Of a stretch of DNA of 64,000 nucleotides, positions 147-13,095 are shown in pieces. Under the pieces are notes generated by a model. It had not been told where the DNA came from. It saw nothing but the letters and a program-made list of their open reading frames with translations, and did no database searches. Each line of letters opens with the position of its first letter. Position 1 is the first letter of the stretch. The stretch covers positions 2,232,001 to 2,296,000 of the forward strand of contig NC_089432.1 of the NCBI RefSeq assembly GCF_026210795.1, read 5' to 3'. The translations under genes were made by a program, and so were the position numbers. The DNA is from Rhizophagus irregularis. Its lineage: Eukaryota; Glomeromycota; Glomeromycetes; Glomerales; Glomeraceae.

Positions 147-870
147 ATGTCTGGATCTTTTACACCTACAATAGTTACCAGAAATTCATATAATGAATAT
201 ATTAATTGGATTGAAGAAGCTATTACGAAACAATACTTTAAATACTATGAATATAATAATTTTAACAACATTGAAGAAGGAAGCTTCGGAACAGTCTACC
301 GTGAAAACTGGAAAAATGCTTCAAGTTATATAGCGTTAAATCTTTTTTTAATTTAAACAATGTTACAATTAAAGAAATTGTTAATGAGGTAATAATAACG
401 TAATATAAGTAGCTAATTTAGGAAATTGCTATTGGAATGGAGACAGAACTGATGTCGATAAAAAGAAGGCATTTGAATCATATCAAAAGGCAGCAAACTT
501 AGATGATGCTAATGGAATATTTAATTTAGGATATTGTTACCAATATGGAATTGGAACTGATGTTAATAAAAAAAGGGCATTTGAATTATTTCAAAAGGCT
601 TCAAATTTAGGAGATTCATCTGGAATATGTGGTTTAGGATATTATTATGATAATTGAATTGGAGCTGATATCAATAATAAAAGAGCATTTGAATTATATC
701 AAAATGCAGCAGATTTAGGAAATAGTATTGCTCAATATAATCTTGCTTTAATGTATGAATATGATATTGGAATTGATAAAAATAAGGATCTAACACTATA
801 TTAGCTTAAAAAATCTGCAGAGCAAGGAGACAGTATATTGCTCAGAAGAGACTAAAGAAATTTAAATAGT
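147..870 (+). pseudogene. Collapsed kinase-Sel1 gene (pseudogene)
   Basis: From the ATG at 147 the protein begins like its paralogues (MSGSFTPTIVT..., then NYIxWIEEAI). The glycine loop is damaged: the paralogues read [12 protein letters not shown] and here three residues are missing (EEGSFGTVY). The ALKSFF lysine segment is lost in a frame change near 340. Nearly the whole kinase domain (HRD and DFG exons) is deleted, because sequence matching the end of exon 1 (to about 390) runs straight into Sel1 units from about 420. These units keep the pattern [14 protein letters not shown]...GxCYxxGIGTD but carry in-frame stops near 656 and 802. An ATG at 105 is a TTG-like artefact of the upstream leader and is not preferred. 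It is a dead relic of the family intact at 17920, 32036 and 52481. Confidence 0.85.
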
Positions 871-2338: not shown

Positions 2339-2359
2339 AAGGGTTTAAAATTTAAACGC
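2339..2359. mobile_element. MITE, left terminal fragment (split by the LTR element)
   Basis: AAGGGTTTAAAATTTAAACGC forms the outer half of a terminal inverted repeat. After removing the LTR element and one copy of the 4-base duplication ACGC it joins to 12851, giving about 41 bases that pair with the reverse complement of 13055-13095. The complete element would be about 265 bases. A related terminus occurs at 40400-40430. Confidence 0.7.
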
Positions 2360-3563
2360 TGAGATCCCCCGATTCCCCCTGTCATCAATTTACAAGGTTG
2401 CCACATCGAACGGGCATTCTCATGGTCGAACGAACGAATGAGAACAAACAAACGAACGAACGAACAATTAAACGAACAAGCGATTAATCAACAACATAAT
2501 TAACAAGCGACACAATCACCGAACAATACACGTCAATATACAACAACATTCTTGGTTCACAACATAAATAGCGTTAGTAATATAAAACGTTGAACGGTAT
2601 AAAATAAAATTAACTTCTCTGAATTTTCCTCAATTTATATCCACTTTTACCTTTAATTTCAAACTTCGATAGCTCTCGCTACGAATTATTACTCTTCAAA
2701 AACATATATTTAATTCATCTTAACATTTTCATTTATTTAATTAAAATTAATTAAGCGAACATTAATTAAAGTTTAGGGCGAACCTATTACCTTTAATTAA
2801 CATTAAACTTCATTAACAAATAATTAAATGAAACTTATATTTTTATTGAGTTCTGTGGATGAGAACTGTGGAATTACTTTGAATTCCGTTCTCTATATAT
2901 ACAATTTTTATGCTACTTTCTATTCTATCTATATACTATCTTTTATGTTCTTTACATATTATCTTTGAACTATCTTTCTAATATACTATCTATATTTTAA
3001 ATACGCAAATATTACATCGTAAAGAAATAATTTATAACCCATCTTTTATGGCTGTGCTATCTTTTCTTTAAAATAATCTTTCAAATATTATGTCGTAAAG
3101 ATATAATTCATCTTTTGTGGCTGTGTTATCTTTTATATATGTTCTTTTTAATATGTTATCTTTTATATTCCATCTTTATGCCATCTTTTCATATTATCTT
3201 GTATATTATTTTGTGTTCTCCAATCTTTCCGACATTATTTTATATATTCTTTTAATCCACTTTATGTGTTTCGCTCATAATCTACCTTTTGTGGCTTATA
3301 ATTATTCTTTCTTGTCGTTCTCATTGTTAAAGATCGCTAAGCCGCAAATGATCGACTCTATTTATCCTATTGGTTCTTTGTCAATCATTCAATAAATATT
3401 ACATCATGTAGATCATTACTCTTCTTAAATGTTTATCCTTTTCGGCTAATTATTTATCCATCCACGCCAATCCACGATTAATTCGTTCGTTCTTAATACT
3501 TGATAATTACATTTGGTGGTTGAATTTTATCTTCTTTTCGTACTTGATATTTGGCCGTTTACA
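2360..3563 (-). repeat. 3' LTR
   Basis: 1204 bases; in element sense it starts TGTAAACGGCC and ends GATCTCA. It matches 11643-12846 with no indel seen. A TATATATA stretch at 2894-2901 (12177-12184 in the other LTR) is a candidate TATA box on the minus strand, about 660 bases into the LTR. The plus-strand 92-residue reading frames found at the same place in both LTRs (3117 and 12400) are chance frames. Confidence 0.95.
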
Positions 3564-3578
3564 TTATCCCCCTCTTCG
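3564..3578 (-). other. Polypurine tract
   Basis: Directly before the 3' LTR in element sense is GCGAAGAGGGGGATAA. This is the expected place and composition for the plus-strand DNA primer of an LTR retrotransposon. Confidence 0.8.
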
Positions 3579-3639
3579 CTATTTGTGACCTCACAAATAA
3601 CTTTAAAAGAATCAAACTCGGGTCTCGTTCATAATAATT

Positions 3640-3870
3640 CTAATTGAATCGAACTCGGGTCTTATCGAATACCTCTTTTCCTTTGATTACTATTTTTGGT
3701 GTAAATTCCCTTCGATCATAAAATTTCTTTAACCATTCTCCATTTTGTGGTGTTTTCAATATTCTTCCGTCTAATTCTTTGAGTTTATATGCTCCATTTC
3801 CAAATTCTTCGTGAATTAAATATGGTCCTTTCCATTTGTTCTGTATTTTTAGTTCTGTGCTCTTCTCCAT
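3640..3870 (-). CDS. Integrase C-terminal domain remnant
   Basis: 76 residues starting at ATG 3870. The segment NKWKGPYLIHEEFGNGAYKL followed by a DGR, then an NGxxLKKFY tail, is the SH3-like C-terminal module characteristic of Ty3/gypsy integrases (KWxGPY...GAYxL...DG...N...LKKFY). The zinc-binding and DDE catalytic domains that normally precede it are missing. Its frame is -1 relative to the RT-kinase frame and its ATG overlaps that frame's last 22 bases. It may be reached by frameshift or reinitiation, or it may simply be a relic left when the kinase replaced the rest of integrase. Confidence 0.8.
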   Translation of the reverse strand: MEKSTELKIQNKWKGPYLIHEEFGNGAYKLKELDGRILKTPQNGEWLKKFYDRREFTPKIVIKGKEVFDKTRVRFN

Positions 3871-4475
3871 TTCTCCACCTCTTTAAATACTTTTCTCCAA
3901 CTACTATTGTCGTTTTTAACTTTTACTCGACTGTATCTTTTAGTATCTTTGTACACGCCCTGATTTTCTTCAAACATTCTAACCATGTCCAAATATTCAT
4001 CCTTCTTTAATGTTGGATATGATGATTTTTCCGTTTTCTTTGTTTCTCTTCCAATGTAATTTTTCCAACATACGTCGCCATCTTTTTCTAAAAATATCAC
4101 TATTGATTTATCTATTGTTTCTTTCAATCTGAATATTTCTTTTTCCATCTCATGATTTCCATGCGGAGTAATTAATCCTCTGTCAAAACTTTTCGTCTTT
4201 TGATAATAATATTCACAATATGGTGATTTGTCTAAAATTATTATATCTGTATCTTCATCGTATTCTACCATTCTTCTATTTATTTGTTCCACTACTTCTT
4301 TTCTGAATTTCCATTCTGTATCCATCTTCGATTCGTGAAATTCATCTTTATCTTTTCTTCTTCTTTTATAAGTATTGAATCTTACTTTTAATCCTTGTTC
4401 TTCCCATTCTTTAATTAAATTTTGTACTATACTTGTTTTTCCCAATCCGTCTACTCCATCGATTATTACTATCTC
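3849..4475 (-). other. Thymidylate-kinase-like P-loop domain (end of the RT polyprotein)
   Basis: Beginning about 10 residues after the RNase H end motif (NADALSR), the polyprotein continues in frame into a nucleotide-kinase fold. Visible features are a hydrophobic strand plus Walker A GVDGLGKTS (residues 501-509), a second strand ending LDKSPYCEYYYQ (575-586, in the place of the TMPK DR(Y/S) motif), and the strand IVIFLEKDGD (619-628). A basic stretch with R637 follows in the position expected for the LID. TMPK converts dTMP to dTDP. The P-loop IDGVDGLGKT is close to the TMPK form (EGxDxxGKST). Other deoxynucleoside or P-loop kinases cannot be excluded. It occupies the place of the integrase zinc-binding and catalytic domains. 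Confidence 0.8.
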
Positions 4476-5963
4476 TGGTTGTTCCTCCACTATCTTCAAT
4501 AATCTACTTAGTGCGTCGGCGTTCGTATTTTCTTTTCCCGACCTATGTACTACTTCGAAATTATATTGCTGTAATTCCATTACCCATCTTGCTCTTCTTC
4601 CTTTCGGTATTTTTGCGTTCATTAATCCTTTTAATGCACTGTGATCTGTTATTACTTTAAATTTTCTATCGATTAAATACTTATGAAAATGTTGAATTCC
4701 CCAAACTATTCCTAAACATTCCAATTCTGTTATCGGGTAATTTTCTTCTGCTGGTAATAAACTTCTACTTGCATATGCTATTACTACTTCTTTTCCTTTT
4801 TCATCTTTTTGACTTAATACTGCACCTAATCCTTTTCCTGATGCATCTGTTATTAATAGAAATTCTTTCTTCCAATCTGGATGTCGCAATATTGGATATT
4901 GTATTAACTTTTCTTTTAATTTTTCAAACGCTTCTTGTTGTTCTTTTCCCCAAATGAAAGGTACTCCTTTCTTTCTCAAGTCGCTTATTGGTCTTGCTAT
5001 CTTTGAAAAATTCTTCACAAATTTTCTGTAATATGAACAAAGTCCTAAAAATGATCTTACTTCTTTCACCGTTGTTGGTGCCTTCATTTCTTTTATCTTT
5101 TCTATCTTTTTATCGTCCGGCCTCAATCCATCATTTCCTACTATATGTCCTAAAAATTCTATATTTCTTTCCAAAAATCTACATTTCTTTAATTTTATTA
5201 TCAAATTATTCTCCTGTAACTTCTTTAATACTTTTTCCACATGTTCCATATGGTCTTTCAAATTTCCTGAATATATCATAATATCGTCAATATATACTAC
5301 CACAAAATCGTTTATGTATTCTTCTAATATTTCATCCATTAATCTTTGAAATGTTGCTGGTGCATTCGTTAAACCGAACGGCATTACATTATATTCAAAC
5401 AATCCTTTCGAACATACAAATGCTGTTTTTTCTTTGTCTTCTTCTTTCATCTCTACTTGATTAAATCCTGCTGCTAAATCTATACTTGAAAACCATTTTG
5501 CTTTTCTATATTTGTCTAATAATTCATCCATTCTTGGTAAAGGAAAACTATCCATTATAGTTATCTTGTTTAACTTTCTATAATCAATACAGAATCTATA
5601 TTTGCCCGTTTTCTTTCCTGCTAACGTAACCGGTGAACTCCATGGACTTTTTGATTTCCTTATCCTTCCTTGTTTTAACAATTTATCCACTTCTTCGCTT
5701 ATAAATTTTGCCTTTTCATCTGTTTCTTTGTATCTTCTTTGCTTTATTGGTTCTACCCCCTCTTTTATCTTTATTTCATGTTGTGCTGCTTTTGTTCTTC
5801 CTTCTATTTCCCCGTCATATTCCAAAATATCTTGGTATTCTAATAGTAATTTTACCATATTTTCCCAAATTGGTTCTTCTACTTTCCCTATACTTAGTTT
5901 TTGCATAAATTTTTCACTTGGTTCGAGCATCTTTTCCGTCTCTCTCTTCAGAGCCAAGACTCT
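3849..5963 (-). CDS. Reverse transcriptase - RNase H - nucleotide kinase polyprotein segment
   Basis: Open from the codon after a UAG (5966-5964) to TAA at 3849. It is in the same frame as protease and Gag; the first ATG is at 5930. Numbering from Ala-Leu-Lys at 5957 (702 residues): RT about 65-300 with RxxDYRxLN near 121-130, LPRMD, SIDLAAGFNQ, VMPFGLTNAPATFQ (191-204) and the catalytic YIDD at 222-225; RNase H about 363-485 with D371 (TDAS), E411, D438 (TDHS) and D481 (NADALS). The nucleotide kinase follows at about 495-702. All catalytic residues expected for RT and RNase H are present, so it should copy RNA to DNA. It is probably made only by readthrough of the upstream stops. Integrase is missing from its normal place. 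Confidence 0.93.
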   Translation of the reverse strand, partial: RVLALKRETEKMLEPSEKFMQKLSIGKVEEPIWENMVKLLLEYQDILEYDGEIEGRTKAAQHEIKIKEGVEPIKQRRYKETDEKAKFISEEVDKLLKQGRIRKSKSPWSSPVTLAGKKTGKYRFCIDYRKLNKITIMDSFPLPRMDELLDKYRKAKWFSSIDLAAGFNQVEMKEEDKEKTAFVCSKGLFEYNVMPFGLTNAPATFQRLMDEILEEYINDFVVVYIDDIMIYSGNLKDHMEHVEKVLKKLQENNLIIKLKKCRFLERNIEFLGHIVGNDGLRPDDKKIEKIKEMKAPTTVKEVRSFLGLCSYYRKFVKNFSKIARPISDLRKKGVPFIWGKEQQEAFEKLKEKLIQYPILRHPDWKKEFLLITDASGKGLGAVLSQKDEKGKEVVIAYASRSLLPAEENYPITELECLGIVWGIQHFHKYLIDRKFKVITDHSALKGLMNAKIPKGRRARWVMELQQYNFEVVHRSGKENTNADALSRLLKIVEEQPEIVIIDGVDGLGKTSIVQNLIKEWEEQGLKVRFNTYKRRRKDKDEFHESKMDTEWKFRKEVVEQINRRMVEYDEDTDIIILDKSPYCEYYYQKTKSFDRGLITPHGNHEMEKEIFRLKETIDKSIVIFLEKDGDVCWKNYIGRETKKTEKSSYPTLKKDEYLDMVRMFEENQGVYKDTKRYSRVKVKNDNSSWRKVFKEVEKWRRAQN

Positions 5964-5966
5964 CTA
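5961..5966 (-). promoter_or_regulatory. In-frame UAG between protease and RT (candidate readthrough stop)
   Basis: The sense reads TTT AAA TAG AGA GTC TTG GCT. Protease ends and RT resumes in the same frame three codons later, and no ATG appears until RT residue 10. A single amber codon separating two pol domains is the arrangement known from readthrough retroelements. The AGA context is not one of the best-known leaky contexts, so a chance nonsense mutation remains possible. Confidence 0.5.
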
Positions 5967-6473
5967 TTTAAAATTCTGGTGCATTTTGAATACCTCTCCT
6001 TCATCGTTGCTTTCATATTCTTCATCGTCTTCGCTCTCCTCACTTTCATATACCTCCCTTTCGTATCCTACTGGAATTGTTATTATTTCTCCCTGTTCTT
6101 CCATTCTTAAGGTATGATCTTCAAAATTTATTTTTGCATTATATAACTTCCATATATCATTTCCCAAAATTAGATCCTCTTCTTCTGAATCGATTACTTC
6201 AACTTCTCTTAGTATTTCCAATTCATCTTTGTATCTCAAAGTTATATTTGCCTTTCCTAACGCTGCTATCTTTTGCCCATTTGCTATTGTACATCTAAAT
6301 TTACTTTTTCCAAATATAGGTATATTCAATCTTCTTCTTAATTTATCTGTTATCACGCTTACTGCTGCTCCGGTATCTATTATTACGCTCACTAATTGAT
6401 CTTCAACTTCTAATTCTGTTCTCATTGCTGTAGTTTTCTTCTCTTCATTTTTCATAGTTCCCACCGAGTGTAG
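5964..6473 (-). CDS. Retropepsin-like aspartic protease segment
   Basis: Open frame continuing directly after the Gag UGA; the first internal ATG is at 6455. The catalytic motif is IIDTGAAVSVI (about residue 27-37), the flap region follows, and ILGNDIWKLY supplies the conserved (I/L)LG element near residue 110. The length, about 165 residues, suits a retroelement protease with a tail. The C-terminal 45 residues are acidic (ESEESEDDEEYESNDEGE). It would cleave the polyprotein in cytoplasmic particles. It lies between Gag and RT in one frame with both, separated by UGA before and UAG after. Confidence 0.88.
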   Translation of the reverse strand, partial: LHSVGTMKNEEKKTTAMRTELEVEDQLVSVIIDTGAAVSVITDKLRRRLNIPIFGKSKFRCTIANGQKIAALGKANITLRYKDELEILREVEVIDSEEEDLILGNDIWKLYNAKINFEDHTLRMEEQGEIITIPVGYEREVYESEESEDDEEYESNDEGEVFKMHQNFK

Positions 6474-6476
6474 TCA
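6471..6476 (-). promoter_or_regulatory. Gag stop UGA-CUA (candidate readthrough signal)
   Basis: The sense sequence is AAA AAT TGA CTA CAC. UGA followed by CUA is an established leaky-stop context in eukaryotic viral and cellular genes. The downstream protease is in the same frame and its first ATG is six codons after the stop. This supports programmed readthrough of Gag into protease. Confidence 0.65.
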
Positions 6477-8111
6477 ATTTTTTTCGTTTATACTTCTTGG
6501 TCTATATGTTCCTTCTCTCAATTGTTTATGATACTTAACATTCCCGTTTATTAATTGTCCATATGTTATATTCGCTCTACAATTTTTCACGTCTTCCACA
6601 ATATCATAAGGTGGTATTCCGTCAGTTAATCTTGGTCCATACTCTCTGGGTTTTGTTGGTCCTCCTGCTTCTCTCCATTTTCTTAGTCCTTCTGTTGGGT
6701 CGTAATAAGCTTGTCTTTTATTACTCCATCTCATTCCTTTTGGTCCTATTGGTCTACCCCCATTTTGTTCTGTGCGTTCAGGTATATAATTTGGTGCCGT
6801 TGTACCACTTGGCATTTCTCTATCATCCATTCTATTTCCTGCTTCCCTTAATTCTTCTTGTAAATTTCCCTCTTCATTATTATTTTTATATCCCACTATT
6901 GGACTCGTTCTTCTTGATTGTCTTCTTCCTTTTACTGCGTCATCTTTTGCGTATAATTCATTATGATAATTTAATTCTCCATCTTCATAATCATCGTAAT
7001 AGCCTTGTGTGTAATATATTCCGTTATATTGTGGTTCCTCGTATCCATATTCATCATAATAATATTCTTCTTGATCATCATATTCGTCTATCATATTTAC
7101 TCTTGCATTCCTTCCTTCGGGACAATTATTCTTGTAATGCCCCACTCTATTACATCCGAAACACGTTGGTACCCTATTCTGATTTGGTTGATAACTATTC
7201 CTATTACCATTATTTAATCTCCTTCCCATATTTGGTCGATACCTATTCCTATTATCGTCATTTAATCTTCTCTCCATATTTGCTACCATTCTTTCTAATT
7301 TACTAATTTTCGCCTTCTCTTTAAACATTTCAGCTAATTCGTCCTCATAATTTTCGTTCAATGGTTTTGCGAACATATTTTGTCTATTGTCATCTTTTCC
7401 GATATCTATCTTCGTACTAATTGGTATTCCTATTGCTTTTCTTAAAAATTCGTCTTTTGCACCTTCTTCTCTTACTGCTATTTCTATCGCCCCATTTAAG
7501 TTCGCTGGATTCTGTCTTCTAACTTGATATCCTATTGTTGGTTCTAATCCTTCGATGTAAAAATCTACTTGATATTCATCTGCTAATGCATGTCCTCTAG
7601 TTGCTATTCTTAATATTTGTCTAAATCTTCTTGTATATTCTTCAACACTTTCATTTGTTTCTTGTCGAGTTTTTCTTAATTCTAGCATTTTCTTTCTTCT
7701 AACATCCTCTCTGGTAAATCTTCTTTTTATTCTATGCTTTAAATCATTATCATTATCTGCATCTGCCCAATTCACTAAGTGACCTGCATTTACTTCTTTC
7801 ATTTCATTATACCATTGTGCTGCTGCTCCTCTTAAATGTGCTGCTGCGTATACCGCTTGTCTTACGCCATTAGCTCCCGCTGCTTTTCCGACTGCTGCAA
7901 ATGCTACATCGAATTGTCTAACCCAATCAGTAACATCTTCATCTTCTCTTCCATAAAAGAGTGGTATACTAATTGTTCCTCCTGCTTCATTTCCTGCATT
8001 TTCGATCCTATCTATCAAACTTCCTCCTGCTCCTACTGCTGCGTTCAAAGTATTAGCCGGATAGCCTAAAGCGTTCTCTATCAATCTCTTTACTTGATCC
8101 TCGGTTGCCAT
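6474..8111 (-). CDS. Gag (capsid-nucleocapsid) protein
   Basis: 545 residues from ATG 8111 (a TTG two codons earlier is not preferred). Residues about 48-230 resemble the Ty3/gypsy retrotransposon Gag capsid region (ISIPLFYGREDEDVTDWVRQF..., AAQWYNE, VEEYTRRFRQI, FYIEGLEP). A zinc knuckle of CX2CX4HX4C type sits at 317-330 (CFGCNRVGHYKNNC). Just before it is a 15-residue tandem duplication (RRLNxxNRNxYxPN, about 281-310). The region after the knuckle is Tyr/Asp/Glu-rich, then basic. It would form the particle and bind element RNA. It ends in UGA-CUA and continues in frame into protease; 101 bases separate it from the upstream ORF. Confidence 0.92.
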   Translation of the reverse strand: MATEDQVKRLIENALGYPANTLNAAVGAGGSLIDRIENAGNEAGGTISIPLFYGREDEDVTDWVRQFDVAFAAVGKAAGANGVRQAVYAAAHLRGAAAQWYNEMKEVNAGHLVNWADADNDNDLKHRIKRRFTREDVRRKKMLELRKTRQETNESVEEYTRRFRQILRIATRGHALADEYQVDFYIEGLEPTIGYQVRRQNPANLNGAIEIAVREEGAKDEFLRKAIGIPISTKIDIGKDDNRQNMFAKPLNENYEDELAEMFKEKAKISKLERMVANMERRLNDDNRNRYRPNMGRRLNNGNRNSYQPNQNRVPTCFGCNRVGHYKNNCPEGRNARVNMIDEYDDQEEYYYDEYGYEEPQYNGIYYTQGYYDDYEDGELNYHNELYAKDDAVKGRRQSRRTSPIVGYKNNNEEGNLQEELREAGNRMDDREMPSGTTAPNYIPERTEQNGGRPIGPKGMRWSNKRQAYYDPTEGLRKWREAGGPTKPREYGPRLTDGIPPYDIVEDVKNCRANITYGQLINGNVKYHKQLREGTYRPRSINEKN

Positions 8112-8218
8112 ATTCAATATATTCTCTTGAAATAAATCTTGTAAATTATAATCAGATAATTCACTTTCGTTGTCAGAATTTTTAATATTTAATGAACTAT
8201 TCGTATCTGAATTTTGAC

Positions 8219-10066
8219 TTAAATCGCTATCCCTCTATTTATACCATTTTCAACTTCATCTTCAAACTCTTCTTCGTTAAAATTTTCAATATCTTCATCC
8301 CATCTTTCATCCGGACTTAGTATTTCTCCAATCTTTTCTGAATCATCTGTATTATCTTCTTCTGATTCTTCATTATCGCTTCTTTCGCCACTTTCTTCAC
8401 TATCTATTATTCCCGCTTGTTCTTTCAACAACTTATCTAATTTTTTCTTCAATTCTTTTTCCAACTCATCTTTATTTTCTTGAAAGATTTCAATGAATTC
8501 TTTATCTAAAATTTCTCCATCTGTATATCCCATACTAGTTAATCTCAACAATTCTTCTTCAGTTATTATTGTTCCAATATCTTCAAAAATCTTCTGTAAT
8601 CTTTTTACCCGATCATCAATTTCATCGATATTTTCTTCTTCACAATCTTTGCATACCATTCCTCTTACTCTAGACATATCATCCATCCATCCCAATCTAA
8701 ACATATCATTCATCCATCTTATTTCACATCTTTCACACCAAGTTGTATTCTTGTTTAACCACTTATGAATTTCTTTTCTTAATTCTTTATCTTCCAAATC
8801 TATCATTTCCATATATTCTTCCACAAATTCTTTAGTTACTATTATTCGATTATTTACCCCAAAACTCTTCATTCTTTGAATTTCTGACACATCTATTTCA
8901 TATCCCAATTTTTCTAAGTTGTTTCTTAATTCTATTAGCTCATCTTGTTCATTCTTCTGCGCTTCTTTAACACATTCCCCGCATTCGCTATCCGCTTCGT
9001 CCATTTCAAACCTTCTATTACCACATTTTTCACATCTTATTGTTTCTTTTTCTAACCATTCTTTTATCCTCAATTCTTTTTCCCTTTCATCCAATTCCTC
9101 TATCTCTTGAATTTTATCCATAAATATTCTCGTTACCAATATATCCATTTCTATCATCAACTTTATTCCTATTTTCCAAATGTACCTCAGTTGATCTTCA
9201 TCCATAACATTTGACCTTCTTCTTAATTCACTAAATTTCCATGATTTATCTCCTATTATTATCTCTAATTCTTCCTCGGAATCATTTTCCAATTCGTAAC
9301 TTGCTGGACTATCTTCACTTTCTGAATCTTCTGGCTCTTTTGTAAATCCCCTAGTATCTATAAATATTCTTATTATCTTTTGCATCATATTCTTGTGATA
9401 TTCGTGAACATTTTCTATATGTATGTTCTCATATTCTATTTTGGACATTAGTTCCTTTACTTTCTCCTCATTCATAGCTATTCCTTCTTCTTCATATAGT
9501 AACTCCCTAAACGTCTCTATTGCTCCTGTCTTTACTCGTAATGGTCCAATTTCTTTTGATGTGATTCTATACCATTGCCAAAATTTCTCAAACCTTCTTT
9601 CAACATCCCAATCTTCCAAAATATATTTGTGTTCTATTAATTCAGGATTTCCAATTAATCTATCAAATACTTCATTCCCCAGATTTCTTTCAATACAGTC
9701 TCTTACAATTACTAATATAATTGTTCGTAATCCCCTTTCTTTCATTTTTGGTTGTATTCTATATCTTATTGATTCCGTTATTCTATCCATTATGTCTCTA
9801 CATTTCCCTTTATGTATTGTATCTTCCCTTTCTGAATTATTCATACTTAATAAATCTAATACTCCCTTAATCGTTACGTCATTGTATATTATTATTGCAT
9901 CTTCAAATTTAAATAACGCGTCCCAAAATTTCTTGAATACTATTGGTTCATTTACTATTGGATAACATAATTCACAATTTAAACATTCATCCAATTCTTC
10001 CGTTCCCAATTCGTGTTCCTCTTTATGTGTTCTATATTCGCTTTCCCATTGATGGTACCATTCCAT
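8219..10066 (-). CDS. Extra retrotransposon ORF with duplicated Cys-pair modules, unknown function
   Basis: 615 residues from ATG 10066; the family is not recognised. It lies upstream of Gag in element sense, in another frame, where most Ty3-like elements have no gene. Cysteines: CLNCELC at 28-34, then two tandem modules of about 100 residues. Module 1 (about 330-427) begins KELRIKEWLEKETIRCEKC and has pairs C345/C348 and C362/C365. Module 2 (about 428-532) begins KELRKEIHKWLNKNTTWCERC and has pairs C444/C447 and C472/C475. Each ends in a helical segment of the type RxxSxGxxxxxIxxKEFxE; a third copy of that segment lies at about 290-328. The last 65 residues are very acidic (ESEEDNTDDSE). Zinc-ribbon-like binding is an inference. 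It could be an accessory or Gag-like protein. Confidence 0.75.
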   Translation of the reverse strand: MEWYHQWESEYRTHKEEHELGTEELDECLNCELCYPIVNEPIVFKKFWDALFKFEDAIIIYNDVTIKGVLDLLSMNNSEREDTIHKGKCRDIMDRITESIRYRIQPKMKERGLRTIILVIVRDCIERNLGNEVFDRLIGNPELIEHKYILEDWDVERRFEKFWQWYRITSKEIGPLRVKTGAIETFRELLYEEEGIAMNEEKVKELMSKIEYENIHIENVHEYHKNMMQKIIRIFIDTRGFTKEPEDSESEDSPASYELENDSEEELEIIIGDKSWKFSELRRRSNVMDEDQLRYIWKIGIKLMIEMDILVTRIFMDKIQEIEELDEREKELRIKEWLEKETIRCEKCGNRRFEMDEADSECGECVKEAQKNEQDELIELRNNLEKLGYEIDVSEIQRMKSFGVNNRIIVTKEFVEEYMEMIDLEDKELRKEIHKWLNKNTTWCERCEIRWMNDMFRLGWMDDMSRVRGMVCKDCEEENIDEIDDRVKRLQKIFEDIGTIITEEELLRLTSMGYTDGEILDKEFIEIFQENKDELEKELKKKLDKLLKEQAGIIDSEESGERSDNEESEEDNTDDSEKIGEILSPDERWDEDIENFNEEEFEDEVENGINRGIAI

Positions 10067-11642
10067 TATATGCTTTAGTTAAATTACTATGAATATCCAT
10101 CCAGAATCTCAATCGGATTCCTCTCTCTATATATATATATTTCACTCTTATCATTTCTATTTTTGATCTTCTAAACATTCTTTCATCTTTAAATAGATTA
10201 CTTCTTTCAATCTTAGATTCCATCTTTCGGTTCTATATATTTACTACGTCATATTTTACTATTAATTTTTTTGCTGCGCCTCGAAATTTCAAAAATTTTT
10301 CTAAGTCCACGATCTCCTCAGGCTGCGGAGGTTTTTTACTGCGCCATAAAATTTATCTTTTATCACCGATTTCCCTAATTTCACATGTCACATCTTTTCG
10401 TCACCGTGATTCATAGTTTCACTTATCACCTCTTTTTGTCACATCTTTTTGTCACATCTTTTTGTCACCAAGATCCATAATTTCACATATCACAAACTTT
10501 ACGAAAATTTTGGAGTTTCAAGGTTTGCGAATTTCCAATCTTTCTTATCGTCCACATAAATCCTTCTTACTATATATTCTATATTATATAAATTAATCTA
10601 TAACACACAAAATGTCGTTCTTTTCAGATAAATGTCTTTCTTTTCAAATAAATGTTCTTTTTCAAATAAATGTCCTTCTTTTCGGATTTTACTCTATTAT
10701 TAAATACTGCACGTAATGTTCATTATACGGCTCGTTAATGTGTAAATATCCTTCTATTTTTTCTTCTTTTAACGGAACATTGTAATGAAAGCGTGAACTA
10801 GGACACTACACCAGGAACCCTCATCTGAAATGTAGCCTAGGACCTGTAACAATACAACGTATCCGTCTTTTCCTTCTTCGTTGGCCGACTTGTTTCTCAA
10901 CGGGTGAATCTAACCTTCCAAAATCCAGTTTCGAAAGTCATCTGCTATCCTCAAAACTCATCTAACCAACTTTCTTAAATTGGTGGACCTATACTGGGCT
11001 TATCTCTATCTTTTTCCCATTGGGTAAAAGCATGATAGTTTACAGGTTTGTCCCATTTTATCCATTCAATGTTTCTTGATAGTAGGTGTCTTTACAATTT
11101 TCATTTCCCGTCCCCAAAGCAATTCGCGCGTTATTGAGCTGGGTATCCAGATTTGACGTAACCCATACGTTATAATCTTTAATGTCGAAGAATAAAAATT
11201 TTCCAATCTTGAGCATTTATCTAAAATCCAAACTCAGAGGTAACCCATACCACACAGATGAACCCCGGATAATACATTGGTGTTCTCCCATTATTAATCT
11301 TTATTCCAAAATTTATCTTTCGCTTCCACATCTCCTTATGAAATTTCTCAGGTACTTTATTCCCGAAAGAAACATTCTTGTGCTTTCTATCGATTAAGTG
11401 ATTACTTGCACAACTCCAAACTCCAATCTTTCGCCTTTTCAAGTTTTTAACTCGTTAAATCCTCATTGATTTATTGGTTCCTTTTGAACTCGTCAAAACC
11501 TGAAATCTAAAAATAAATTCTAAAATAAAATATTGATTAATAATACCTATCAGTGACTTACTAACGAAATTAAATTTTCATATTCATTATAATAATAATC
11601 ATGTGATGATGATCATTTCCTTTCTTGCGAGCATGCACCATA
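10067..11642 (-). other. Retrotransposon 5' leader
   Basis: About 1.6 kb between the 5' LTR and the first ORF in element sense, unusually long. No convincing frame. Tandem words (TCACATCTTTTTGTCAC and variants on the + strand) occur at 10385-10500, and a repeated AAATGTCCTTCTTTTC-like word at 10620-10690. The leader may hold packaging or translation signals, which cannot be seen directly. Confidence 0.6.
11625..11640 (-). other. Candidate primer-binding site
   Basis: In element sense the 5' LTR ends ...GATCTCA, then TA, then TGGTGCATGCTCGCAA. TGG at this place would pair with the CCA end of a tRNA. I could not identify which tRNA would match. Confidence 0.55.
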
Positions 11643-12846
11643 TGAGATCCCCCGATTCCCCCTGTCATCAATTTACAAGGTTGCCACATCGAACGGGCAT
11701 TCTCATGGTCGAACGAACGAATGAGAACAAACAAACGAACGAACGAACAATTAAACGAACAAGCGATTAATCAACAACATAATTAACAAGCGACACAATC
11801 ACCGAACAATACACGTCAATATACAACAACATTCTTGGTTCACAACATAAATAGCGTTAGTAATATAAAACGTTGAACGGTATAAAATAAAATTAACTTC
11901 TCTGAATTTTCCTCAATTTATATCCACTTTTACCTTTAATTTCAAACTTCGATAGCTCTCGCTACGAATTATTACTCTTCAAAAACATATATTTAATTCA
12001 TCTTAACATTTTCATTTATTTAATTAAAATTAATTAAGCGAACATTAATTAAAGTTTAGGGCGAACCTATTACCTTTAATTAACATTAAACTTCATTAAC
12101 AAATAATTAAATGAAACTTATATTTTTATTGAGTTCTGTGGATGAGAACTGTGGAATTACTTTGAATTCCGTTCTCTATATATACAATTTTTATGCTACT
12201 TTCTATTCTATCTATATACTATCTTTTATGTTCTTTACATATTATCTTTGAACTATCTTTCTAATATACTATCTATATTTTAAATACGCAAATATTACAT
12301 CGTAAAGAAATAATTTATAACCCATCTTTTATGGCTGTGCTATCTTTTCTTTAAAATAATCTTTCAAATATTATGTCGTAAAGATATAATTCATCTTTTG
12401 TGGCTGTGTTATCTTTTATATATGTTCTTTTTAATATGTTATCTTTTATATTCCATCTTTATGCCATCTTTTCATATTATCTTGTATATTATTTTGTGTT
12501 CTCCAATCTTTCCGACATTATTTTATATATTCTTTTAATCCACTTTATGTGTTTCGCTCATAATCTACCTTTTGTGGCTTATAATTATTCTTTCTTGTCG
12601 TTCTCATTGTTAAAGATCGCTAAGCCGCAAATGATCGACTCTATTTATCCTATTGGTTCTTTGTCAATCATTCAATAAATATTACATCATGTAGATCATT
12701 ACTCTTCTTAAATGTTTATCCTTTTCGGCTAATTATTTATCCATCCACGCCAATCCACGATTAATTCGTTCGTTCTTAATACTTGATAATTACATTTGGT
12801 GGTTGAATTTTATCTTCTTTTCGTACTTGATATTTGGCCGTTTACA
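11643..12846 (-). repeat. 5' LTR
   Basis: 1204 bases, the upstream LTR in element sense, apparently identical to 2360-3563. It ends at TTTACA and is followed by ACGC, matching the ACGC before 2360. A five-base reading (AACGC) is possible if the last A is counted as target. Confidence 0.95.
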
Positions 12847-13095
12847 ACGCACCTGCGTTTGAATGCACACCCCATGGTATAAGTCAAAAATGAGGTTTTA
12901 ACCCTTTTTGTCACAATAAGTAAAGTTGTAGAGGAGGCAAAAATACGCATATAACGTGAGGTTTCAAGGTTTATTTATAAGTGTATAAGGTATAAACTGC
13001 GTTTTATTCAATTCTCTGGTAGCATTTTTATTATATAAAAATTTCCAAAAAGGGGGTGCGTTTAAAACGCAGGCGCGTTCAAATTTTAATCCCTT
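12847..13095. mobile_element. MITE, body and right terminus
   Basis: This continues the element begun at 2339. The left terminus, rejoined across the LTR element, reads AAGGG(T)TTAAAATTT(A)AACGCACCTGCG..., with ACACCCC at its inner end. The right terminus 13055-13095 is its reverse complement with a few changes (GGGTGCGTTTAAAACGCAGGCGCG...AATCCCTT). It is non-coding. The superfamily is not determined because flanking duplications are unclear. Confidence 0.7.

What the first reader, a model, noticed from the sequence alone, without database searches (positions are those of the whole stretch)
3849..4475. Thymidylate-kinase-like domain in place of integrase in a Ty3-like retrotransposon
Seen: after the RNase H end motif NADALSR the RT polyprotein continues in frame into a P-loop kinase domain (GVDGLGKTS, LDKSPYCEYYYQ, IVIFLEKDGD) and stops. 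The HHCC and DDE integrase domains are absent and only an integrase C-terminal module follows. Known: some retroviruses carry dUTPase in pol to control dNTP pools. Inference: the element captured a nucleotide kinase that may raise dTTP for reverse transcription and now borrows integrase in trans. I know of no described element of this kind.
Basis: partly seen in the sequence, partly recalled or inferred. Interest (0 to 1): 0.92.

Follow-up and report, generated by a model that had tools for sequence, protein, structure and literature searches.

The report
Retrotransposon carrying a thymidylate-kinase-like domain
A lineage of Ty3-like jumping genes in this genome (probably an arbuscular mycorrhizal fungus) carries a nucleotide-kinase-like domain between its DNA-copying enzymes and its integrase, and may use it to make DNA building blocks; the copy in the window has lost its integrase as well.

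Summary
The window holds a 10.5-kb Ty3-like LTR retrotransposon (minus strand; identical 1,204-bp LTRs, ACGC target-site duplication). Its 702-aa RT-RNase H protein runs in frame into a P-loop kinase domain. The domain matches a phage thymidylate-kinase profile over nearly its full length (E 8e-14; 10 of 10 kinases of the lineage tested), whereas three other nucleotide kinases did not match it. It lies below Pfam's TMPK cut-off and has DK where TMPKs have DR, so I call it TMPK-like.

"In place of integrase" is wrong for the lineage. Four families (kinases 53-100% identical to the window's, 151 matches) have the order RT-RNase H-kinase-integrase. Of 58 near-full-length kinases closest to the window's, 40 have a full-length integrase match just downstream. 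The window copy belongs to a minority that lost integrase through deletions with at least four different junctions. A sister family has no kinase, with RNase H and integrase only about 200 nt apart in 10 copies measured.

A kinase match follows 85 of 87 RT hits of the kinase-bearing families (capped list). It evolves under purifying selection and has been swapped between families. Most likely it supplies dTDP/dTTP for reverse transcription, like retroviral dUTPase. Catalysis is not shown. My literature searches found no such element.

The parts
11643..12846 (-). 5' LTR (1,204 bp, TG...CA), identical to the 3' LTR
2360..3563 (-). 3' LTR
2356..2359 (.). target-site duplication ACGC, one copy
   Evidence: flanks printed
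12847..12850 (.). target-site duplication ACGC, other copy
   Evidence: flanks printed
11624..11640 (-). putative primer binding site, TGGTGCATGCTCGCAAG, 2 nt inside the 5' LTR (no tRNA matched to it)
8219..10066 (-). ORF1, 615 aa with CxxC motifs, function unknown; related sequence forms one frame with gag in copies of families A (C20), B (C16), C and D
6474..8117 (-). gag (Retrotrans_gag, Ty3_capsid; a zinc-knuckle match below cut-off); ends in TGA-CTA before the protease
5964..6464 (-). aspartic protease ORF
4494..5957 (-). reverse transcriptase-RNase H part of the 702-aa ORF, ending NADALSRLLK
3852..4490 (-). TMPK-like P-loop kinase domain (residues 490-702), in frame with RT-RNase H
3837..3850 (-). 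junction of the roughly 1.08-kb deletion that removed the integrase zinc-binding and catalytic domains (14-nt stretch that aligns to both sides, with mismatches)
3640..3870 (-). 76-aa frame keeping the integrase C-terminal (GPY-type) module
3564..3577 (-). polypurine tract GAAGAGGGGGATAA directly before the 3' LTR

Best explanation
The window copy is a young, integrase-deleted member of a Ty3-like LTR-retrotransposon lineage whose pol carries a TMPK-like P-loop kinase at the RNase H/integrase boundary (shown). In families A, B and C the kinase is in frame with RT-RNase H; in family D it is in one frame with integrase (shown). Between families the kinase shows purifying selection, and its relationships conflict with those of RT, most simply explained by exchange through recombination (shown by sequence). 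Inferred: released by the protease or left fused to RT, it phosphorylates a deoxynucleoside monophosphate, most likely dTMP to dTDP, inside or near the particle, and so raises dTTP for copying an AT-rich element in a fungus whose nuclei are often quiescent. The window copy and its like are inferred to insert with integrase supplied by related copies whose integrase frame is open.
For: One open frame RT-RH-kinase. Kinase matches throughout the genome in four main families. Integrase ORFs directly downstream, H2C2 and rve above Pfam cut-offs in 5 of 5 tested from families A-D, many more by similarity; 40 of 58 near-full-length family-A kinases have a match of at least 1,200 nt, some with internal stops. 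85 of 87 scored RT-RH hits of the kinase-bearing families have a kinase match within 1.5 kb downstream, a few of them fragments; 0 of 23 family-E copies do within 5 kb (on the 150 listed kinase rows), and 10 E copies show RH-to-IN gaps of only about 200 nt. Kinase dN/dS 0.085-0.24 between families. PHROG thymidylate kinase profile matches 10 of 10 kinases, best 1.7e-15, 7-209 of 214 in the window copy; E. coli Tmk matches it, Adk, Gmk and Udk do not at E up to 1e-3. Profile-profile match to a TMPK alignment, 96.4%, 127 columns, with LDKSPYCEYYYQ set on the DR..S..AYQ motif. Module swap: kinase of B is 84-86% like A while B's RT-RH is 64% like A and 84-85% like C2.
Against: Pfam and NCBIfam TMPK models score below their cut-offs, and in Pfam the P-loop family AAA_14 also matches 10 of 10 and AAA_28 matches 9 of 10 with a better best E (2.5e-6). 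The best solved-structure matches are FtsY P-loops, yeast TMPK only E 0.078. The DR arginine is lysine in all 10. The part behind the P-loop alone gives no significant profile match (probability 1%). No usable structure model (pLDDT 43). No expression or activity data for this element. Family E does without the kinase, so it is not essential for Ty3-type transposition here. The RT tree does not settle whether the kinase was gained once, or lost in E.
Confidence: 0.6

Rival explanations
1. The domain is an active P-loop phosphotransferase of another specificity: a broad dNMP or deoxynucleoside kinase, or a kinase acting on nucleic-acid ends, so that it serves another dNTP or end processing rather than dTTP.
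For: DK instead of DR in all 10; weak or sub-cut-off matches to many P-loop families, AAA_14 in 10 of 10 and AAA_28 in 9 of 10; single-sequence profile comparison cannot tell Tmk from Gmk (67.6 against 63.9).
Against: The only two PHROG profiles matched by 10 of 10 kinases are both thymidylate kinases, one near full length; Pfam Thymidylate_kin covers residues 11-174 of the window kinase, whereas the other Pfam matches listed for it end by residue 104.
Confidence: 0.25
2. The domain binds nucleotide but is not an enzyme: a sensor or structural spacer that couples RT or integrase activity to the nucleotide pool.
For: Fusion to RT in A-C and to integrase in D; divergence from known TMPKs and loss of the DR arginine.
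Against: Walker A lysine, the DK pair and downstream R149, K153 and K156 are invariant in 10 of 10, as expected if catalysis is kept.
Confidence: 0.12
3. Passenger gene or assembly chimera without function for the element.
For: LTR elements are known to carry captured sequence (PMC6431247, passages).
Against: 151 matches in several diverged families, dN/dS 0.085-0.24 between families, a kinase match behind 85 of 87 RT hits. Copies that lost integrase keep an open kinase frame, but these copies were found by their kinase, so this point is biased.
Confidence: 0.03

Closest known systems
Ty3/gypsy (Metaviridae) LTR retrotransposons
   Same: LTRs, PPT, gag, aspartic protease, RT-RNase H, then integrase with H2C2, rve and GPY-type end; RT-RH of sister family E matches Ty3 RT 4ol8 at E 6e-100.
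   Different: An extra TMPK-like domain between RNase H and integrase; an unknown ORF1 before gag; integrase outside the RT frame; window copy without integrase core.
dUTPase-bearing retroviruses and LTR retrotransposons (non-primate lentiviruses with dUTPase between RNase H and integrase, recalled; basidiomycete, rotifer and planarian elements with dUTPase between protease and RT, PMC5408684 and PMC6431247, passages)
   Same: A nucleotide-metabolism enzyme built into pol; PMC5408684 says retroviral dUTPase can lie between RT and IN, the same place.
   Different: A kinase, not a pyrophosphatase; would make rather than clean up dTTP; unrelated protein fold (recalled).
Thymidylate kinase (dTMP kinase), cellular and phage
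   Same: P-loop GxDGxGK, DR-like motif in register with D...YQ, near full-length match to PHROG 761.
   Different: Below Pfam and NCBIfam cut-offs, DK for DR, fused to RT-RNase H or integrase.
Bdelloid LTR retrotransposons with captured enzymatic ORF3 (DEDDy exonuclease, GDSL esterase; PMC5408684, abstract and passages)
   Same: Captured enzyme modules shared between different elements, swapped modularly.
   Different: Separate ORF3 after pol; no kinase ('kinase' occurs 0 times in that text).

Membership tests
Ty3/gypsy LTR retrotransposon | Two LTRs with TG...CA ends and a short target-site duplication | tested here: met
   1,204-bp identical LTRs, ACGC on both sides
Ty3/gypsy LTR retrotransposon | Ty3-type capsid gag, aspartic protease, RT and RNase H | tested here: met
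   Pfam matches over cut-off for each
Ty3/gypsy LTR retrotransposon | Integrase (H2C2, DDE core) after RNase H in the lineage | tested here: met
   Pfam over cut-off in ORFs of A, B, C and D; E by similarity
Ty3/gypsy LTR retrotransposon | Integrase core in the window copy itself (autonomy) | tested here: not met
   About 1.08 kb deleted; only the C-terminal module remains
Ty3/gypsy LTR retrotransposon | tRNA primer binding site and polypurine tract | tested here: inconclusive
   PPT clear; TGG-starting PBS seen, tRNA not identified
Thymidylate kinase | Curated TMPK model over its cut-off (Pfam PF02223, NCBIfam TIGR00041) | tested here: not met
   About 21 of 27 bits and 19.5 of 83.25 bits for the window kinase
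Thymidylate kinase | Near full-length homology to TMPK profiles, above other nucleotide kinases | tested here: met
   PHROG 761 10 of 10, E 8.3e-14 for the window; Adk, Gmk, Udk not matched at 1e-3
Thymidylate kinase | Walker A of TMPK type, GxDGxGK (motif recalled) | tested here: met
   Present in 10 of 10
Thymidylate kinase | DR[YH] motif with catalytic arginine (motif recalled; R invariant among the 9 TMPKs) | tested here: not met
   DK in 10 of 10, aligned on DR
Thymidylate kinase | NMP-kinase fold | tested here: inconclusive
   Single-sequence model pLDDT 43; its fold matches are not informative
Thymidylate kinase | Phosphorylates dTMP | not testable with these tools
   needs an assay

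The most novel reading that the evidence does not exclude
A retrotransposon lineage has built a working deoxynucleotide kinase into its pol polyprotein and so makes its own dTTP (or another dNTP) where reverse transcription happens. This would be the first known element that raises a dNTP precursor itself rather than hydrolysing dUTP, with the kinase acting as an exchangeable cassette between families and kept even by integrase-less copies.
Probability: 0.45. Interest if true: 0.85.

Novelty: new variant of a known kind. Interest (0 to 1): 0.74.

Why it matters
dNTP supply limits reverse transcription in non-dividing cells, and the known element-borne answers act indirectly (dUTPase; host-factor degradation; both recalled). 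An element-borne nucleotide kinase, kept in several families with a kinase-less sister in the same genome, gives a natural comparison to test whether reverse transcription is dNTP-limited in a filamentous fungus with long-lived nuclei. It also shows that the RNase H/integrase boundary accepts, keeps and exchanges such modules outside retroviruses.

Tried and rejected
Kinase as replacement of integrase: rejected, integrase follows it in related copies. Assembly chimera: rejected. Bacterial, archaeal or viral donor: pattern-based scans of viral contigs and genome contigs with the kinase alignment found no relative; phage tblastn gave only E 0.2 or weaker (an Oceanotoga phage thymidylate kinase at E 0.6) and 0.5 or weaker. 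Solved structures: P-loop-level matches, led by FtsY in the profile search; yeast TMPK at E 0.078. Structure: single-sequence AlphaFold model pLDDT 43, fold matches unrelated and not used. RT tree with Ty3 as the only outgroup (9 elements, 409 columns): 'kinase-bearing families together' and 'E with D' are equally good (AU 0.48 and 0.58), 'D outside all' is worse (AU 0.04), so the number of gains is open. Copy L037 (C15) was dropped from the RT tree because it lacks most of RT. Decoy profile comparison with single sequences did not discriminate. tRNA for the PBS not identified: no tRNA gene lies in the window, and the genome was not searched for one.

Full report
WHAT IS IN THE WINDOW. The window lies at G000:C4:2232001-2296000 of a 146.7-Mb assembly in 32 contigs. 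On the minus strand, 2360-12846 is one LTR retrotransposon of 10,487 bp. It has two LTRs of 1,204 bp that are 100% identical, ACGC on both outer sides and a polypurine tract at the 3' LTR. Between the LTRs lie ORF1 (615 aa, unknown), gag, protease, RT-RNase H-kinase (702 aa) and a 76-aa frame with the integrase C-terminus. Identical LTRs suggest a recent insertion.

THE KINASE DOMAIN. Residues 490-702 follow NADALSR in the same frame. Pfam gives Thymidylate_kin at 1.8e-4, 21.7 bits (cut-off 27), among other P-loop matches; NCBIfam gives dTMP kinase models far below cut-off. Over the 10 aligned kinases, Thymidylate_kin matches 10 of 10 in Pfam, but so does the P-loop family AAA_14, and AAA_28 matches 9. 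PHROGs settles much of the doubt: phrog_761 'thymidylate kinase' matches the window domain at 8.3e-14 over 7-209 of 214, and all 10 kinases (best 1.7e-15); phrog_2107, also thymidylate kinase, likewise matches 10 of 10. As controls, E. coli Tmk and four of four phage TMPKs tested match phrog_761, while E. coli Adk, Gmk and Udk do not at E up to 1e-3. Profile-profile comparison with nine TMPKs gives 96.4% over 127 columns and sets LDKSPYCEYYYQ on the DR..S..AYQ motif; behind the P-loop alone the match is not significant (1%), though its best spot is that motif. The arginine of DR is lysine in all 10. I therefore say TMPK-like, not TMPK. The single-sequence structure model is poor and its fold matches mean nothing.

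THE LINEAGE. One search found 151 matches to the kinase (150 of 172 candidates scored). By identity to the window most fall into families A (about 92-100%, one 87%), B (about 83-86%), C with the related C2 (about 59-65%) and D (about 53-56%); a few lie between (74-82%) and some are fragments. Ten representatives were aligned. In A, B and C the kinase is in frame with RT-RNase H. In D, RT-RNase H stops right after the RNase H motif, and kinase plus integrase form one 600-aa frame. In A, B and C an integrase ORF of about 400 aa with H2C2 and rve follows the kinase. Family E is a kinase-less sister: in L061, RT-RNase H ends NADAMSRLI, about 200 nt follow, then integrase. Comparing E copies whose RT match runs to its end have only 196-204 nt between the RT and integrase matches, too short for the kinase. 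For the kinase-bearing families, 85 of the 87 RT-RNase H hits scored have a kinase match within 1.5 kb downstream, a few of them fragments; the two misses have one further downstream (about 15 and 4 kb), not examined. Of 23 E copies, 0 have one within 5 kb (150 listed kinase rows).

SELECTION AND MODULE SWAP. Between families the kinase has dN/dS of 0.085-0.24; many dS values exceed 1 and are saturated, so the ratios are rough, but RT-RNase H (0.11-0.22) and integrase (0.085-0.36) behave alike. The kinase of B is 84-86% identical to A, whereas its RT-RNase H is 64% identical to A and 84-85% to C2, whose kinase is 80-81% like C. The RT tree groups B with C2 (support 100); the kinase tree groups C2 with C (support 95), apart from A and B. 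The simplest reading is that the kinase part has been exchanged between families by recombination. Nine elements and Ty3 alone as outgroup do not tell whether the kinase was gained once, gained twice or lost in E.

WHY THE WINDOW COPY LACKS INTEGRASE. Against C29:869642, which carries integrase and whose kinase prints as 100% identical, the window aligns at 99.6% up to the kinase end, then skips about 1,078 bases, with a 14-nt stretch that aligns, imperfectly, to both sides. Of 58 kinases with at least 200 of 214 residues at 87% or more (rows; shorter fragments were left out), 40 have an integrase match of at least 1,200 nt downstream (some with internal stops), 7 a shorter one, 11 none listed. 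Of these 11 I read 8. Seven, the window included, show deletions with four different junctions, where the two sides overlap by 2-14 nt; three of these junctions occur in two copies each (window and C18:486979; C21 and C19; C16 and C11; C20 alone). The eighth, C10, differs: its downstream stretch aligns to parts of integrase at 73-87% after an unaligned stretch of about 600 nt. The other three were not read. Copies sharing a junction differ by about 3-14% over the compared pieces, so the integrase-less forms have probably been copied or kept for some time; repeated use of the same short repeat is not excluded. Such deletions fit template switching in reverse transcription, and insertion then needs integrase from related copies (inference).

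HOW IT MOST LIKELY WORKS. Shown: a conserved TMPK-like domain sits within pol, with purifying selection between families. Inferred: it makes dTDP (then dTTP by host enzymes) near the reverse transcriptase. The element is 69% A+T (GC 0.313), so dTTP demand is high. In retroviruses dUTPase plays a related part (recalled) and may lie between RT and IN (PMC5408684, passage). Rivals are another kinase specificity, a nucleotide sensor, or a passenger; the last is poorly compatible with selection and retention.

KNOWN OR NEW. Ten literature searches in the held library showed no paper on an LTR retrotransposon with a nucleotide kinase. Five of them returned 0 papers, among them the three that pair retrotransposon with thymidylate kinase (14, 56, 99); of the rest I saw listings, only the first 15 of 159 and of 54. 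Of two R. irregularis TE papers (PMC11075540, PMC8647823) and two on captured retroelement ORFs (PMC5408684, PMC6431247) I read passages, not the whole texts: in the passages shown of the first two, 'kinase' means expanded signalling genes; in the other two the word occurs 0 times. Gypsy elements are reported as recently expanded and expressed in R. irregularis spores (PMC8647823, passages). Most subscription papers and all bioRxiv preprints are outside the library, and the large protein database was off, so relatives in other fungi remain unknown.

VERDICT. Observation confirmed; interpretation partly supported. New variant of a known kind: a Ty3-like lineage with a TMPK-like domain between RNase H and integrase; the window copy is an integrase-deleted derivative.

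Noticed in passing
gag/protease junction: window 6465-6476 (-) and copies of families A, B, C, D, E: gag ends in TGA followed by CTAC, with the protease in the same frame, in 9 of 9 copies with a stop there (families A-E); one D copy, C14, has no stop there. UGA-CUA is a known stop-readthrough context (recalled), so gag-protease may be made by readthrough.
   Followed up: partly
L061 about 3800-3920; families C, C2 and E between RNase H or kinase and integrase: A small conserved frame of about 45 aa (EIYIFIIHTNINYHCILFEDKEIKFILPFENEIE type) precedes integrase in the C, C2 and E copies read; the A copy read lacks it. Function unknown.
   Followed up: partly
L049, between RNase H and kinase: Family D has a different frame of about 75-80 aa between RNase H and kinase, so the surroundings of the kinase differ between families.
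   Followed up: no
window 8219-10066 (-): ORF1 of 615 aa with CxxC pairs and no Pfam match over cut-off lies before gag; related sequence (27-89% identical) forms one frame of 1,093-1,372 aa with gag in six copies of families A-D compared, in one of them (C14) with the protease too.
   Followed up: partly
L003 (G000:C6:4452986-4456141), about 1486-2065: A broken, diverged copy of the kinase whose first part exceeds the Pfam TMPK cut-off (27.7 bits) lies behind a coiled-coil-like frame with no RT recognised by eye on that strand of the fetched stretch: another element type or an isolated copy.
   Followed up: no
L037 (G000:C15:4387400-4397000): An internally deleted copy joins ORF1- and gag-like sequence in frame to the end of RNase H and keeps kinase and integrase (951-aa frame).
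   Followed up: partly
window 400-870 (+): Decayed gene with Sel1-like repeats (recognised by eye) next to the element, of a kind expanded in arbuscular mycorrhizal fungi.
   Followed up: no
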